From: Clostridiales bacterium
Lineage (GTDB): Bacteria > Bacillota > Clostridia > Peptostreptococcales > Acidaminobacteraceae
Length of the DNA stretch: 64,000 nt
NCBI GenBank assembly: GCA_030446305.1
Contig: JASUSA010000001.1
Location: 1 to 64,000, forward strand
Reading direction: 5' to 3'
Both the position numbers and the translations under genes were made by a program. Each line of letters opens with the position of its first letter. Position 1 is the first letter of the stretch. Shown in pieces: positions 4,902 through 64,000 of this stretch. The notes below the pieces were generated by a model. The model did no database searches, was not told the origin of the DNA, and saw only the letters and a list, made by a program, of their open reading frames with translations.

Positions 4902-4933
4902 AAACAAAAAGAGATGTTGATCACATCTCATTA
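4902..4933 (-). terminator. Probable intrinsic terminator for the 5163-5933 gene
   Basis: GAGATGTGATCAACATCTCTTTTTGTTTTT on minus strand. Confidence 0.55.
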
Positions 4934-5100
4934 CTGGCTTATTAGCTTATTTACCTACTTGCTTATTTACTTACTTGCTTATTGGCTTACTTGCTTATTA
5001 GCTTACTGGTTTCTGGCTTACTAGTTTTTGGCTTATTGGCTAGGCTATATTGGCTTTATTAGCTTTATTAGCTTTACTAACTTTACTGGCCTGACTATAT
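4931..5100. repeat. Degenerate octanucleotide tandem array (TTAYTDGC-like)
   Basis: ttactggc ttattagc ttatttac ctacttgc ttatttac ttacttgc ttattggc ttacttgc ttattagc ... Confidence 0.8.
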
Positions 5101-6353: not shown

Positions 6354-6535
6354 CTATCCGAACGTGTCAATTTTCCTTTCTTAAAGATTTGATATGCTCA
6401 TCTTAACAGTGAAGCTCAAATCTGTATTGTAAAAAATCGGCGTTTGCTGCTCTTGCAGTCTTTTTCTAAGAAAATTGCATTATAAGCTTTCATTCATTTT
6501 TACATTATATCGTTTTAAATTATGTCGTTTTTACA

Positions 6536-7354: not shown

Positions 7355-7432
7355 AAAAAAACTCCTGTTTACAGACTTTAGGACATTGCATCATCGCAAT
7401 CACGATAGAAATTGCATACCGACATTAATGAT

Positions 7433-7545
7433 GGAAATTGCATAGTGGCCTTTCATTGATCCTTCACGACAATCTATTAATGCCTGTCTTTCAAGCAACC
7501 TATACAAACGGCGTGAAAGGCGTTAGCGTTAAATAATTCAATGGC
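7433..7545 (+). repeat. Dispersed ~115-bp repeat, copy A (degenerate 3' end)
   Basis: GGAAATTGCATAGTGGCCTTTCATTGATCCTTCACGACAATC...GGCGTGAAAGGCGTTAGCGTTAAATAATTCAATGG. Confidence 0.75.
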
Positions 7546-7550
7546 TACAA

Positions 7551-12146: not shown

Positions 12147-12183
12147 TCGAAAAATTTATTGATTGTATAAATCTTTACTTTTA

Positions 12184-12300
12184 AGGAAATAACATCATTA
12201 CCTTTCGTAGATCCTTCACGGCAACAGGTTGCATTTTCGTACGATGAAAATAGTGCCAATTGTCATGAAAGGGTTAAAATTTAAATGATGTAATTTTCTC
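12184..12300 (+). repeat. Dispersed ~115-bp repeat, copy B
   Basis: AGGAAATAACATCATTACCTTTCGTAGATCCTTCACGGCAA...TTGTCATGAAAGGGTTAAAATTTAAATGATGTAATTTTCT. Confidence 0.85.
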
Positions 12301-12337: not shown

Positions 12338-12510
12338 ATGGTATCATAACCTTGCTATTCCTGTCTCGGGCATATGCTCAGAGCAGTATTTGTTTTTTTC
12401 ATACATTTTTCGTGCGATCTAAATCCAAATTGCGTATAGTCCATTAGGTACTATCGCATTTATTATAACATACTATCCTAAACAAAATATTACGTTTTTT
12501 TAACATTCAT

Positions 12511-23646: not shown

Positions 23647-23721
23647 AAACGCCTATGTGCCAAATCACCATTTTTAAATCCATTAACGGCATCTCGAACA
23701 CGCTTTTAGCGCTTATTATCC

Positions 23722-23860
23722 TCAATCTCTCAATTTCCTATTCTCCTATTCTCTTATTCTCTTATTCTCTTATTCTCTTAATTTCTTAATTTCTTATTCT
23801 CTCATTTTCTTATTTTCTTAATCTCTCAATCTCTTATTCTCTTATTTTCTCATTTTCTTT
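23722..23860. repeat. Octanucleotide tandem array (TTATTCTC-like)
   Basis: ttattctc ttattctc ttattctc ttaatttc ttaatttc ttattctc tcattttc ttattttc ... Confidence 0.9.
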
Positions 23861-23920
23861 ATATCTTCGCTTAATATTCTCATTTTCTGTCCTGATCTGC
23901 AACTACTAATAGTAATAATT

Positions 23921-29679: not shown

Positions 29680-29770
29680 TCTTTATCGTTTACTTTATCG
29701 CTTTCGTGTTCATTTTACATGTCTTTTGTTTATGTTTTATGTTAGATCTGTTTCATATGCTTTATACTTG

Positions 29771-29790
29771 AGGAAATTGCATCATTCAAA
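29771..29790 (+). repeat. Partial terminus of dispersed repeat (copy C)
   Basis: AGGAAATTGCATCATTCAAA, identical to repeat terminus; remainder absent. Confidence 0.6.
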
Positions 29791-29796
29791 TATGAA

Positions 29797-31050
29797 TCAT
29801 TTTTCCTTATTCTCCTGCTGCATCTGAAGCACCACACAACGTGAAATTGTCGCTCGTTTGTTGACGATGTCTTCGACTAAAACGCGACAGGTTGGCGCAC
29901 CGCAAGCACCACAGTTGATACCGGGCAGTATCTGTGATATTTCTTCAATTTGCGCCATTTTTTCCAGCGCTTTTCTAAAATCCGTATCCAATTTGAAAAT
30001 TGGCAATGCCTCAATTGGCGAATCCCATGCCATGTTTTCAGCTTTTAACGGCATATCAACATTGATTTCTTTTGTAAGATCATAATTTTTCACATGTTTC
30101 CGAATACGATTTTTGCCAATAAATGTATTTTCTACATTGAGCGGACCGCCGACACAGCCGTTGACGCATGCATAACCTTCAAAAAAATCCAAGGTATTGA
30201 GCTTGCCGAGTTCCATTGTCTCAAGTACCTTTATAACCTCTTCTATGCCATCGACAGCAATATAATCCTCTATTTCCATTGCATAACTTTGGCCGCCAAC
30301 GCGTCCCCATCCAATGCCCTTGCCCGTTGCGCACTGAATTTGACGTTTTACTTCAATTTTATCAATGAATTTCATCAGACGATAATAAACTTCCTCTGTG
30401 GAAATGGCTTCATCAATATGAGAATGTGTCAGACCGATTGGGTTTTTGATACTCGTAATTTTTGCTGGACATGGTGTAATATAGAAGATACCAATATCCT
30501 CTCGCTTCATGCCCGCATCTGCAAGCTTCTGTTCAATAAAACGCGCTGCAATTTCCATTGGCGATTCGAGTTTAATAATATTGTCAATCAGCGATGGAAA
30601 TCTTATTTGAATAAGTCGTGTGATCACGGGACAATAAGTTGAAATAAGTGGTTTATTCTCCGTTGTTTCTTGGATAATTTTCTTTTGATAAATGGATAGG
30701 ATTTCAGCGGCATGCGCCAGATCAAAGACATCGTCAAAACCAAGCTGCAACAAACCGTTGTATATTGTATTCATATCGTGTTCCAATCCGAATTGGCCAT
30801 AAAATGATATTGCTGGCAAAGCCACTTTGTATTTATATCTATCAAGCGTTTCAAGTGTACTTACTTGTGCACCCTTTGCATGAAAAGGACAGACGCGCAA
30901 ACACTCGCCACAGTCAATACATCTGGATTCAATGATCTTCGCCTTTCCGTCAACAACGCGGATAGCTTGTGTTGGACATCGATCCAAACAATGCGTGCAG
31001 CCATTGCAATAATCCTTTTCAAGAATAACCGAATGCCAGTATTCTTTCAT
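29797..31050 (-). CDS. [FeFe]-hydrogenase-like iron-sulfur protein, putative sensory HydS type
   Basis: 2x[4Fe-4S] CNGCTHCLDRCP / CIDCGECLRVCP; H-cluster-like STYCPV, ITPCPAK, GYACVNGCVGGP; C-terminal Fe-S domain GINCGACGAPTC. Confidence 0.85.
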   Translation of the reverse strand: MKEYWHSVILEKDYCNGCTHCLDRCPTQAIRVVDGKAKIIESRCIDCGECLRVCPFHAKGAQVSTLETLDRYKYKVALPAISFYGQFGLEHDMNTIYNGLLQLGFDDVFDLAHAAEILSIYQKKIIQETTENKPLISTYCPVITRLIQIRFPSLIDNIIKLESPMEIAARFIEQKLADAGMKREDIGIFYITPCPAKITSIKNPIGLTHSHIDEAISTEEVYYRLMKFIDKIEVKRQIQCATGKGIGWGRVGGQSYAMEIEDYIAVDGIEEVIKVLETMELGKLNTLDFFEGYACVNGCVGGPLNVENTFIGKNRIRKHVKNYDLTKEINVDMPLKAENMAWDSPIEALPIFKLDTDFRKALEKMAQIEEISQILPGINCGACGAPTCRVLVEDIVNKRATISRCVVLQMQQENKEK

Positions 31051-32901: not shown

Positions 32902-33018
32902 AAGGAAATTGCATAACCAGCATTCGTTCCGCCTTCACGACAATATGTTGTACTTCAGCCTTGTGATAGATATACATATTGCGGAAAAAGCTTGAAATTT
33001 AAATGATGCAATTTCTTT
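32902..33018 (+). repeat. Dispersed ~115-bp repeat, copy D
   Basis: AAGGAAATTGCATAACCAGCATTCGTTCCGCCTTCACGACAATATG...CATATTGCGG...GAAATTTAAATGATGCAATTTCTTT. Confidence 0.85.
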
Positions 33019-33172
33019 GTCTTTCTCTATTTTAAACTATTTATCTTGTTTTTGAAACCATACATTTAAAAAACATGCGCTTTCCATCCATCTTCACGTC
33101 TACTCGGACAACATGTCAAACAAACCGATGACCGTTTCAGAGGATGATCAGCGCATATAATAATAGACAATA

Positions 33173-33202
33173 AAAAACGACAGACTAAAAATCTGCCGTT
33201 TT
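33173..33202 (-). terminator. Terminator downstream of GntR gene
   Basis: AAAACGGCAGATTTTTAGTCTGTCGTTTT. Confidence 0.65.
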
Positions 33203-33237
33203 CGCCGCAGCAAAATGCTGCCGGAATTGAAATCATG

Positions 33238-33975
33238 CTAAAATAAAATATGGTAATTATCTCTCAATGTCGTTCTGACATTGTGAATATGAATACGCAT
33301 CACGCGCTCTGCTTCATCGGGATCACCAGCCTCAAGTGCGTGAAATAACGCTGTATGTTCTTCAAGCGATTGATTGCTCCGACCTGTGATGAGAACCGTG
33401 CGTTTGTTGTATCGCCTCAACTGCAGCCTGATAGATTGTATCAGTTCAATTGCTTCACGATTTGGACAAATATCATACAGCACTTGATGAATCATATCGT
33501 TTATTCCCGAGTATTCGAGCAGTTTATTTTCCGCTAGAAATCCCTTCATTTCCCCTAAATTATTTCGAAGAATTGAAAGCTCTTTTTCTGTGATAACCTT
33601 TGCTGCACTGTAGGCAATAAGCCCTTCTAGCCGCTCTCTTATTTCAAGGAGATAAACGGCTTCTTCCAGCGTCAGTGACTTAACGCGAGCGCTCTTGTTT
33701 GCTTCCAGTTCAACGAGTTTTTCGTTCACTAGCATCATCAAGGCTCTTTTAACCGTGTTTCTGCTAACGCCAAGCTCCTCAGCAAGCGCTGATTCAACCA
33801 GTGTTTGCGATGGAACATACACGTGATTTAATATTCTGCTTTTAATGGTTTCATATGCCTTTTCTCCGGACAGTGACAAAAAAATCGACCTTCCTTTCGC
33901 TAAATTCAAACGATTCGCATGCCTATTATACCATAAATTGTGATGACTGAAAACTGAGTGTATTAACGATTTCAA
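33238..33975 (-). CDS. GntR/FadR-family transcriptional regulator
   Basis: YETIKSRILNHVYVPSQTLVESALAEELGVSRNTVKRALMMLVNEKLVELEANKSARV. Confidence 0.88.
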   Translation of the reverse strand: MKSLIHSVFSHHNLWYNRHANRLNLAKGRSIFLSLSGEKAYETIKSRILNHVYVPSQTLVESALAEELGVSRNTVKRALMMLVNEKLVELEANKSARVKSLTLEEAVYLLEIRERLEGLIAYSAAKVITEKELSILRNNLGEMKGFLAENKLLEYSGINDMIHQVLYDICPNREAIELIQSIRLQLRRYNKRTVLITGRSNQSLEEHTALFHALEAGDPDEAERVMRIHIHNVRTTLRDNYHILF

Positions 33976-33997
33976 TCACCCATGTTTAGTGTTGTCT

Positions 33998-34702
33998 TTA
34001 AATAACTCCAGCTTTCGCCAATGTATCGTCAATCGCCTTTTTCGCAATAACGCCAGAAAGTATTTCCGCCATCCGTGCACGGTCTTTTTCGAGTTTTGCT
34101 TCCGCACCCTCTAAAATCGCTTGCCATTGATTTTTTGGTACGACGACAACGCCATTGGCATCGCCTACAATAATATCCCCGGGTGTCACTGCCACACCGC
34201 CGCATGCAATAAGGCCGTTTATTTCACCGGGACCATCCTTGTCGCCGACAGCAGGTGTGATACACCTTGCAAAAACTGGTGCATTGCCCTGTTTCAATTC
34301 TAAAATATCGCGAACACCACCATCAATTACAAGGCCGCTGACACCTTGTGCCATTGCTGCGGTCGCCATGAGATCACCCATAACGCAATTGCTGTCACAG
34401 CCACATGTATCCACGACAATGACATCCCCAGGTTTAGCCATGGCTATTGCCTTATGCAGCATCAAGTTGTCGCCCGGACGCATTTTAACCGTAAGTGCAC
34501 ATCCAGCGATCGTCAGCATTTCATCAATGGGTTTTATTTGATGATGCATGGCATTAAATTTATTAAGACCGTCGCTTACTGCACAAGTACCCGCTTTTTT
34601 AAAGCGTTCCAGTATTGCATTGTCAAGGCGTTCAAAATCATCATTAATTCTAAATCCAATTTTACCTTTGTTTATATTTTCCATAACCAGTTCCTTTATC
34701 AT
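33998..34702 (-). CDS. RraA-family protein (HMG/CHA aldolase-like)
   Basis: GTCAVSDGLNKF, KPGDVIVVDTCG, MATAAMAQGVSGLVIDGGVRD, GDIIVGDANGVVVVP. Confidence 0.88.
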   Translation of the reverse strand: MIKELVMENINKGKIGFRINDDFERLDNAILERFKKAGTCAVSDGLNKFNAMHHQIKPIDEMLTIAGCALTVKMRPGDNLMLHKAIAMAKPGDVIVVDTCGCDSNCVMGDLMATAAMAQGVSGLVIDGGVRDILELKQGNAPVFARCITPAVGDKDGPGEINGLIACGGVAVTPGDIIVGDANGVVVVPKNQWQAILEGAEAKLEKDRARMAEILSGVIAKKAIDDTLAKAGVI

Positions 34703-34711
34703 TTATTGTGC

Positions 34712-34831
34712 AAGACAATTACATAATAGCCTTGCGTTGAACCTTTGTCACAATAAGGTCGAATACCCCACTTTCAGCGAACTTCCCCATTGTGGCAAAG
34801 GCGTTAAATTTGAAAGATACAATACGTTTCT
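34712..34831 (+). repeat. Dispersed ~115-bp repeat, copy E (diverged)
   Basis: AAGACAATTACATAATAGCCTTGCGTTGAACCTTTGTCACAATAAGG...CCCCATTGTGGCAAAGGCGTTAAATTTGAAAGATACAATACG. Confidence 0.75.
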
Positions 34832-36809: not shown

Positions 36810-37856
36810 TTACTGAATAACACCTATTTCACGATAGTACTTTTCTGCACCTGGATGAAGCGGCACAGGTACTTGCCAAGCCGTTTCCGGCGTAATCTCT
36901 TTAACGACATTATGTGCAGTTGCATAATCATCGACACCTTCCAGCGCATGCTTCACAAAATCATAGGCAGCTTCGTCTGAAAGTGATGATTTTGCAAAGA
37001 TATTGGTCATGATTTTAAGTGTTGTCGTGTCATGATCAATGCCTTTGTAGGTTCCTGCCAGAATAGTGTATTTTTCATAATAGGGTGATTCCGCAACGAT
37101 TTGATCTAAAATCGCATCATCGACGGTCACCAAATCCACATCTGCCGTTGCACTTGCATTCATTAATGCCGCTGTTGGAATGCCGGCAACAAAAAATGTC
37201 GCATCCAAATCGCCGTCTACGAGCTTGGATACACCTTCGTCAAAAGAGAGGTAGTATGGCTTAATATCATTTTCAGGATCGACACCATAAGCGCTTAAAA
37301 TTGCTTTTGACATTTCAACAATCGTCGTACTCGGCGGTCCAAGACATACCTTTTTACCTTTAAGATCTGCATAGCTCGCAATGCCCGAATCAGATTTAAC
37401 CACCATATGACCTGCGCTCATGTACAGCGACATCAATCCAACAATATCTTGCTTGCCGATGTTCTCGTAACTTCCAGTACCATAGTAGCCAAAATAGACG
37501 CCGTCTGCATTTGACATCCCCATTTGAATATCACCCGCATTTGTTAAATTGATATTTTCCATAGACCCTTTTGTCGCCTGTACAATAACGTTAACCTTAT
37601 CAGAACGCTCAGAGATCACCTTTCCCATTGCCGCACCAACGACATAATAGGTTCCCGCTGTACCGCCAGTGCCGAGAATTATATCTTCTTTCGCCGTCGA
37701 TGCCGTCGCCTCAGATGATGATGTTTCTGTCGATGACGCGCCTTCAGATCCTGTACCGCCAGTTGTTTCCGGTGCCGATGATCCACAAGCTGTCATCACC
37801 ATGATGATAACCAATAATAAGCTCAATAACCCACTAAACTTTGCCTTATTTCTCAT
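36810..37856 (-). CDS. TAXI-family TRAP solute-binding lipoprotein
   Basis: MRNKAKFSGLLSLLLVIIMVMTACGSS lipobox; IILGTGGTAGTYYVVGAAMGKVIS. Start moved to 37856 (GGAGGG RBS) from ORF start 37895. Confidence 0.9.
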   Translation of the reverse strand: MRNKAKFSGLLSLLLVIIMVMTACGSSAPETTGGTGSEGASSTETSSSEATASTAKEDIILGTGGTAGTYYVVGAAMGKVISERSDKVNVIVQATKGSMENINLTNAGDIQMGMSNADGVYFGYYGTGSYENIGKQDIVGLMSLYMSAGHMVVKSDSGIASYADLKGKKVCLGPPSTTIVEMSKAILSAYGVDPENDIKPYYLSFDEGVSKLVDGDLDATFFVAGIPTAALMNASATADVDLVTVDDAILDQIVAESPYYEKYTILAGTYKGIDHDTTTLKIMTNIFAKSSLSDEAAYDFVKHALEGVDDYATAHNVVKEITPETAWQVPVPLHPGAEKYYREIGVIQ

Positions 37857-37880
37857 GTTTTCACCCTCCAAATTAAGTTT

Positions 37881-37993
37881 AGGAAATTGCGTCATTCAAA
37901 TTATAAGCCTTTCACGATACAGCGATTATTTAATAGCACGAAGATTCAGCATTTCGTCGCGAAGGATCAACGATAATGATGATGCAATTTCCT
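37881..37993 (+). repeat. Dispersed ~115-bp repeat, copy F (best-preserved termini)
   Basis: AGGAAATTGCGTCATT...AATGATGATGCAATTTCCT. Confidence 0.9.
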
Positions 37994-37999
37994 TAGTTT

Positions 38000-57359: not shown

Positions 57360-57369
57360 AGTTTATCTA

Positions 57370-57482
57370 AGGAAATTACATCCTATCACTCAGTTGAACC
57401 TTCACCCAATGGGTTGAATACCCGCTTTAAATAGGGTATATATTGCAGTGAGCGTGTTAAACGCTTAATGATGCCATTTCCT
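57370..57482 (+). repeat. Dispersed ~115-bp repeat, copy G
   Basis: AGGAAATTACATCCTATCACTCAGTTGAACCTTCACCCAAT...GTGTTAAACGCTTAATGATGCCATTTCCT. Confidence 0.82.
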
Positions 57483-57566
57483 CATCTACTAACTATTATA
57501 CCTGTATTTTCCGCTTTTTTAATAGTATAATTATTAAATAAATATTACACGAACGGAGTGTTGAGA

Positions 57567-63862: not shown

Positions 63863-63917
63863 CTTATAACCCTCCTTTTAATTCGCTGGTGTTTGAAAAG
63901 AGGGTCTCTCTTTCTCA

Positions 63918-64000
63918 TCAGCGGATGCGGTACGTCATCGCAGAAAAATCTTTCGTCCGTCGGCAACCTCCCATCCGACGGCACTTAACGCGTCGTACCT
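63918..64000 (-). ncRNA. Tetrahydrofolate (THF) riboswitch upstream of folT
   Basis: Minus strand GGTACGACGCGTTAAGTGCCGTCGGATGGGAGGTTGCCGACGGACGAAAG...CGTACCGCATCCGCTGATGAG matches THF aptamer pattern; 5' end at window edge. Confidence 0.88.

What the first reader, a model, noticed from the sequence alone, without database searches (positions are those of the whole stretch)
32902..34831. Inner helix of the repeat family shows apparent compensatory changes
In copy E the inner arms are CCTTTGTCACAAT and ATTGTGGCAAAGG (complementary with one G-U); in copy D a different inner pair, CAATATGT and ACATATTG, is perfectly complementary; in copy B CCTTCACGGCAA faces TTGTCATGAAAGG. Pairing maintained while sequence differs would point to selection on RNA (or cruciform) structure.
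Basis: inference. Interest (0 to 1): 0.65.

Follow-up and report, generated by a model that had tools for sequence, protein, structure and literature searches.

The report
Mobile hairpin repeat favouring RNA folding
The repeats are about 100 worn copies of a 118-base mobile DNA element that folds into a long hairpin; in this bacterium and a relative from another genus, mutations that leave the hairpin intact in the transcribed RNA outnumber those that break it, which suggests that cells benefit from keeping the inserted RNA folded.

Summary
The arms are real and belong to a 118-bp quasi-palindromic repeat with about 95 copies in this Fusibacter genome and at least 80 in F. paucivorans. It is a MITE: 16-bp terminal inverted repeats, a 4-bp ANNT target duplication (35/135 perfect, 4.6 expected) and clean empty sites in F. 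paucivorans at copies B, D and 37880.

D's pair is simply the unmutated consensus. B has no double change in its inner arms. Only E has true double changes, and its "G-U" is an A·C on the transcribed strand. Single pair-breaking changes outnumber pair-keeping double changes about 10:1.

Two tests still support structure. Pair-keeping double changes exceed a tree-based null, and they also separate four genera. New here: on the transcribed strand G·U wobbles outnumber A·C mismatches 429:272 in 122 independent copies (copy-level p=2e-5), but not at unpaired positions (178:165). This replicates in held-out copies and in another genus. It points to RNA, not cruciform. Strand-biased mutation is not fully excluded, and post-split changes in shared copies (28:32) do not show the bias.

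The core hairpin also occurs with unrelated ends and a 9-bp duplication in another genus, so core and ends are modular.

The parts
32902..33018 (+). Copy D, full element, 117 bp; between a promoter-like site (33056-33029, - strand) and the tmk start (32873, - strand)
   Evidence: CM R1 93.5 bits; empty site in F. paucivorans L074; promoter-like site; tmk Pfam
32941..32948 (+). D inner arm CAATATGT (unmutated consensus)
   Evidence: consensus
32974..32981 (+). D inner arm ACATATTG (unmutated consensus)
   Evidence: consensus
34712..34829 (+). Copy E, full element, strongly diverged (38%), upstream of the rraA-like gene
   Evidence: CM R1 69.1 bits; divergence; fewer bases at this site in F. paucivorans but junction too diverged
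34742..34754 (+). E inner 5' arm CCTTTGTCACAAT with three double changes against consensus
34789..34801 (+). E inner 3' arm ATTGTGGCAAAGG
12183..12300 (+). Copy B, best preserved copy in the window, between the pan motif and the DUF2520/panG-like gene
   Evidence: CM R1 119.5 bits; clean empty site; pan motif
7431..7548 (+). Copy A, degenerate (40% diverged)
   Evidence: CM R1 69.7 bits
37880..37994 (-). Copy in the opposite element orientation, just upstream of the ribosome-binding site of the NMT1-like solute-binding protein gene
   Evidence: CM R1 82.7 bits; clean empty site
57369..57483 (+). Degenerate copy between divergent genes, shared with F. paucivorans at the same site (68% identical; flanks 97-98%)
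29769..29800 (-). Truncated copy (one end only) overlapping the 3' end of the gene at 29797-31050
6469..6515 (+). Truncated copy (5' part only)

Best explanation
The repeat is a non-autonomous DNA transposon (MITE) of 118 bp, AAGGAAATTGCATCATT...AATGATGCAATTTCCTC, that inserted many times into TA-rich intergenic targets, duplicating 4 bp (ANNT). Shown: terminal repeats, target duplications, empty sites, both orientations, placement mostly between co-directional genes or upstream of divergent genes. Inferred: an unidentified transposase moved it. After insertion it is co-transcribed with the neighbouring gene (inferred from position) and folds into a long hairpin (predicted). The hairpin decays by mutation, but changes that keep pairing in the transcribed RNA (G-U) persist more often than their mirror images (A-C): weak purifying selection on the RNA fold. 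Pair-keeping double changes in source lineages and between genera fit the same constraint. Most likely use (inferred, about 40%): the fold keeps inserted RNA closed on itself, so that it does not sequester ribosome-binding sites or expose unprotected RNA to nucleases or premature termination. Second (about 25%): RNase III processing or mRNA stabilisation, as for Neisseria Correia/NEMIS elements.
For: MITE: TSD; empty sites; patchy distribution, 5 of 297 and 5 of 395 genomes of the order; orientation 42:45 and 87 co-directional, 29 divergent, 6 convergent gaps. RNA-level selection: G-U:A-C 334:232 on the transcribed strand in 87 copies, Fisher p=2.5e-5, copy-level p=2e-4, MFE asymmetry p=2e-4; replicated in held-out Fusibacter copies (74:52, p=0.015) and in genome G013 of another genus (64:28, p=1.2e-4); after removing shared sites and tandem copies 429:272, CMH by pair column p=2e-9, copy-level p=2e-5; unpaired columns 178:165, paired versus unpaired CMH p=0.004 on the 133-copy set. 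Covariation. The G-U/A-C logic is that of RNAstrand (PMC1892782).
Against: Decay dominates: consensus -57, copies median -28 kcal/mol; single pair-breaking events about 10 times the pair-keeping doubles; RNAalifold finds no pairs. Between shared copies of the two species, post-split single differences are G-U 28, A-C 32, no bias (small sample). The control with partners already broken by transversion gives 59:48, so part of the bias may be general. No transcript data. Gene calls are a simple ORF heuristic.
Confidence: 0.6

Rival explanations
1. Plain neutral decay of a palindromic MITE: pairing is inherited from the source element, copies lose it at random, and apparent compensation is chance plus subfamily ancestry.
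For: Consensus folds far better than copies, and a simulated independent decay comes near the observed energies (-23.8 vs -27.6 kcal/mol mean); 30-copy pairing 78.5% vs 76.4% shuffled; shared copies are often only 66-86% identical while flanks are mostly 90-100%; post-split changes show no wobble bias.
Against: Pair-keeping doubles exceed the leave-pair-out tree null; strand asymmetry replicated in three sets and two genera; cross-genus covariation.
Confidence: 0.2
2. Structure is kept at DNA level: the palindrome matters for transposition (or cruciform/ssDNA hairpin), or arms are corrected to each other by template switching in the quasi-palindrome; no RNA role.
For: Excess of doubles on internal branches, that is in source lineages; 22-36 bp remnants with intact target duplications suggest DNA hairpin deletion; REPIN hairpins show compensatory changes and are read as DNA mobility units (PMC3116915).
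Against: DNA-level selection or correction should not distinguish G-T from A-C by the direction of transcription of the host locus. The internal loop stays asymmetric (8 against 6 nt), so arms are not simply homogenised.
Confidence: 0.2
3. Strand-asymmetric mutation (leading strand or non-template strand C>T and A>G) produces G-U on the sense strand without selection.
For: Flanks show G over C skew 0.20 on the transcribed strand; cells whose partner was already broken show a slight excess, 59:48.
Against: Unpaired columns of the same copies show no clear bias (121:119, 29:30, 40:33), and exposed bases should be more, not less, affected; flanks are A over T, not T over A; both C>T and A>G are biased only at paired sites.
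Confidence: 0.2
4. A dedicated cis-regulatory RNA (leader switch) for panG, tmk and rraA.
For: Copies B, D, E sit in 5' leaders close to start codons; D follows a promoter-like site.
Against: Both orientations equally frequent (42:45); sites B and D empty in F. paucivorans; no Rfam match; hosts functionally unrelated.
Confidence: 0.04

Closest known systems
Correia / NEMIS elements (Neisseria)
   Same: 100-155 bp MITE with terminal inverted repeats, many intergenic copies co-transcribed with genes, hairpin RNA (PMC2229807, PMC10969869)
   Different: Other ends; Correia termini carry 5'-TA-3', here a 4-bp ANNT duplication; RNase III processing not tested here
ERIC / IRU (Enterobacteriaceae)
   Same: 127-bp imperfect palindrome, intergenic, transcribed; orientation matters for mRNA stability (PMC2229807)
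   Different: Other host phylum, ends and target duplication; here both orientations tend to keep the fold on the transcribed strand
REPIN / RAYT elements
   Same: Short mobile hairpins with compensatory changes (PMC3116915)
   Different: REPINs are doublets of REP sequences linked to RAYT tyrosine transposases; here 16-bp TIRs and a target duplication of the kind DDE transposases make
TIR-sharing MITEs in genome G025 (another family of the order)
   Same: Identical ends GAGGAAATTGCATAATT, about 76 ends
   Different: Other core sequences, 83-376 bp
Core-sharing elements in genome G013 (another genus)
   Same: Same core GTTGATTCTTNNNNACAATATGTTG...ATACATATTGT...AAGAATT
   Different: Unrelated ends (AAGCCACTGAAAAAGT) and a 9-bp duplication

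Membership tests
Bacterial MITE | Terminal inverted repeats | tested here: met
   16-bp complementary ends in consensus
Bacterial MITE | Target-site duplication | tested here: met
   4-bp ANNT, 35/135 perfect vs 4.6 expected, maximum 13 in 2000 shuffles
Bacterial MITE | Dispersed copies with empty orthologous sites | tested here: met
   About 95 copies; empty sites B, D, 37880
Bacterial MITE | Mobilised in trans by an autonomous element with the same ends | tested here: inconclusive
   No transposase element with these ends found in sampled loci of G000, G001, G025
ERIC / Correia-NEMIS | 5'-TA-3' at the termini as in those families (PMC2229807) | tested here: not met
   4-bp ANNT duplication around AAGG...CCTC ends
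ERIC / Correia-NEMIS | RNA processing by RNase III or RNase E affects neighbouring mRNA | not testable with these tools
   Needs transcripts
REPIN / RAYT | REP doublet with associated RAYT tyrosine transposase | not tested
   RAYT genes were not searched; the target duplication points to another mechanism
Known Rfam RNA family | Covariance-model match | tested here: not met
   No match over the element at gathering or E<=10 thresholds
Dedicated cis-regulatory leader RNA | Fixed orientation to the regulated gene | tested here: not met
   42 sense, 45 antisense
Structured RNA under selection | Covariation above phylogenetic background | tested here: met
   Leave-pair-out trees; cross-genus core; modest effect
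Structured RNA under selection | G-U tolerated over A-C on the transcribed strand, at paired sites only | tested here: met
   not seen in post-split changes of shared copies

The most novel reading that the evidence does not exclude
The core hairpin is an RNA module in its own right that has been carried by at least two unrelated transposition systems (16-bp GGAAATTGCAT ends with a 4-bp duplication; AAGCCACTGAAAAAGT ends with a 9-bp duplication), and host transcripts then keep it folded: a mobile element family that spreads by tolerating or exploiting selection on its RNA shape.
Probability: 0.22. Interest if true: 0.75.

Novelty: new variant of a known kind. Interest (0 to 1): 0.52.

Why it matters
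Whether bacterial MITE hairpins matter as RNA or only as DNA has mostly been argued element by element. This family gives a genome-wide, strand-aware test that needs only sequence: both orientations occur in equal numbers, so each copy's two strands control for each other. If the wobble asymmetry holds up, selection acts on the transcripts of a supposedly selfish repeat, and the same test can be run on ERIC, Correia, BOX and REPIN families. The shared core with exchanged ends is also a handle on how MITEs change transposase partner.

Tried and rejected
Rfam at gathering and permissive thresholds: nothing on the element. RNAalifold on 30 copies: no common pairs. A dedicated leader regulator: rejected on orientation and empty sites. 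An autonomous partner: pattern search for ends and 20 loci each from G000/G001 and G025 gave only short elements, solo ends and 22-36 bp deletion remnants. An early alignment mixed both orientations because the element is nearly symmetric; copies were re-oriented. A first tree test with the tested columns inside the tree gave excess only on internal branches; leave-pair-out trees gave it on both, so "only in mobile lineages" is not claimed. The per-copy fold excess over simulated decay cannot separate RNA from DNA causes. The junction at copy E is too diverged to show an empty site.

Full report
OBSERVATION. The quoted arms are in the sequence, but they are parts of one 117-118 bp element with further copies at 7431, 12183, 37880 (opposite orientation) and 57369, plus truncated pieces at 6469 and 29769. 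Aligned in the right orientation, the copies give a nearly perfect palindrome, AAGGAAATTGCATCATTACCTTTAGTTGATCCTTCACGACAATATGTTGAATTTTCGTCTTATGAAAATAATACATATTGTCGTGAAAGGATTAAAATTTGAATGATGCAATTTCCTC: an outer helix of 16 pairs (the terminal repeats), an asymmetric internal loop, an inner helix of 22 pairs and a small apical helix. A consensus folds at -57 to -59 kcal/mol (z -12), real copies at -14 to -54, median -28.

Measured against the 135-copy consensus, D's CAATATGT/ACATATTG is unchanged consensus sequence, higher up the same helix than E's arms, so the two were not comparable. B's inner arms show single changes only. E has three adjacent double changes in the inner helix, shared with a copy elsewhere (C4:21614) and so probably inherited from a source element. 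E's single G-U is on the + strand; tmk, rraA and the panG-like gene are read from the - strand (Pfam), where it is A·C.

WHAT IT IS. Flanks carry a 4-bp direct repeat of form ANNT: 35 of 135 perfect, 4.6 expected, never above 13 in 2000 shuffles. In F. paucivorans the sites of B, D and 37880 are empty, with flanks joining where the element sits here. The two species share 19 occupied sites among the copies compared. The family is patchy: 5 of 297 and 5 of 395 genomes of the order. This is a MITE. No autonomous partner was found. Remnants of 22-36 bp with their duplication still present show that the palindrome is lost by internal deletion.

MODULARITY. Genome G013, another genus of the family, has 42 copies with the same core but unrelated ends (AAGCCACTGAAAAAGT) and 9-bp duplications such as CATTTAGGG, GAATTATTT and CCATAATAA. 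Genome G025, another family of the order, has about 76 of the same ends (GAGGAAATTGCATAATT) around different cores. G101 and G050 have both the ends and the core. Ends and core have therefore been recombined.

COVARIATION. Across 30 copies pairing is 78.5% against 76.4% for shuffled columns. Across 135 copies, cells changed on both sides and still Watson-Crick number 235 against 153 (z 7.8), mainly at columns 38/82, 45/75, 4/115 and 35/85. With trees rebuilt without the tested pair, pair-keeping double changes are 16 against 4.7±1.9 on internal and 86 against 60±7 on terminal branches, while single pair-breaking changes number 1064. Between genera the inner helix covaries: 45 double-changed cells against 22, pairing 83.6% against 78.8%, 0 of 500 shuffles. 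In copies shared by the two species, double differences are 56 against 46.6 (p 0.025), 19 of them paired in both. Covariation is above background but weak; decay is the main trend.

STRAND TEST. A transition in a Watson-Crick pair gives G·U on one strand and A·C on the other (principle in PMC1892782). Under DNA-level causes neither should follow the direction of transcription. Genes were called by an ORF heuristic; 87 copies lie between co-directional genes, 42 sense and 45 antisense. On the transcribed strand G·U:A·C is 334:232 (Fisher p 2.5e-5; copy-level permutation p 2e-4), and folding energy shifts the same way (p 2e-4), in both genomes. Unpaired columns of the same copies give 121:119. 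Held-out Fusibacter copies: 74:52 (p 0.015). G013, with other ends: 64:28 (p 1.2e-4), energies p 5e-4. Pooled over 133 copies: 481:313, seen in outer, inner and apical helices; paired against unpaired CMH p 0.004. Keeping one copy per shared or tandem site: 122 copies, 429:272, unpaired 178:165, CMH stratified by pair column p 2e-9, copy-level permutation p 2e-5, and a similar ratio in young and old Fusibacter copies. Weak points: post-split differences in shared copies are 28:32, and cells whose partner was already broken are 59:48.

INTERPRETATION. The element moves as DNA. Once transcribed as part of a leader or intercistronic stretch (inferred; D lies just after a promoter-like site conserved in F. 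paucivorans), its hairpin is under weak selection as RNA. I favour a self-insulating role, with RNase III processing second. Rivals are neutral decay, DNA-level palindrome maintenance and strand-biased mutation; the last is the hardest to exclude because co-directional genes are probably also co-oriented with replication.

KNOWN KINDS. MITEs with long hairpin transcripts that affect mRNA are known (Correia/NEMIS with RNase III, ERIC with RNase E: PMC10969869, PMC2229807), and REPINs show compensatory changes (PMC3116915). This family differs in its ends and target duplication, has no Rfam model, and adds the strand-resolved evidence and the exchange of ends around a conserved core.

Noticed in passing
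12357-12457 (- strand): Rfam pan motif; MITE copy B lies between it and the start codon of the DUF2520/panG-like gene, in a site that is empty in F. paucivorans.
   Followed up: partly
63917-64000 (- strand): THF riboswitch aptamer cut by the end of the window.
   Followed up: no
23697-23904 and 4922-5017: Imperfect tandem arrays with an 8-bp register (CTTATTCT-type, and CTTATTTACTTGCTTA-type).
   Followed up: no
29769-29800: A solo end of the MITE overlaps the 3' end of the gene at 29797-31050, so a MITE fragment probably supplies its last codons.
   Followed up: no
L186, L187, L188, L196: Remnants of 22-36 bp in which the hairpin interior is deleted but the 4-bp duplication survives, e.g. 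ATGT-AAGGAAATTGCATCATTTCCTC-ATGT.
   Followed up: partly
shared sites, e.g. window 57369-57483 vs G001:C6:50345: At several shared sites the element is only 66-86% identical between the two species while the 60-bp flanks are mostly 90-100% identical; the element appears to evolve much faster than its flanks.
   Followed up: partly
G025 (L224-L243): A set of MITEs of 83 to 376 bp with the same ends and different cores in another family of the order.
   Followed up: partly
37880-37994: The ORF list starts the NMT1-like gene inside the MITE copy; a Shine-Dalgarno-like GGAGGG near 37850 suggests the true start is downstream.
   Followed up: no
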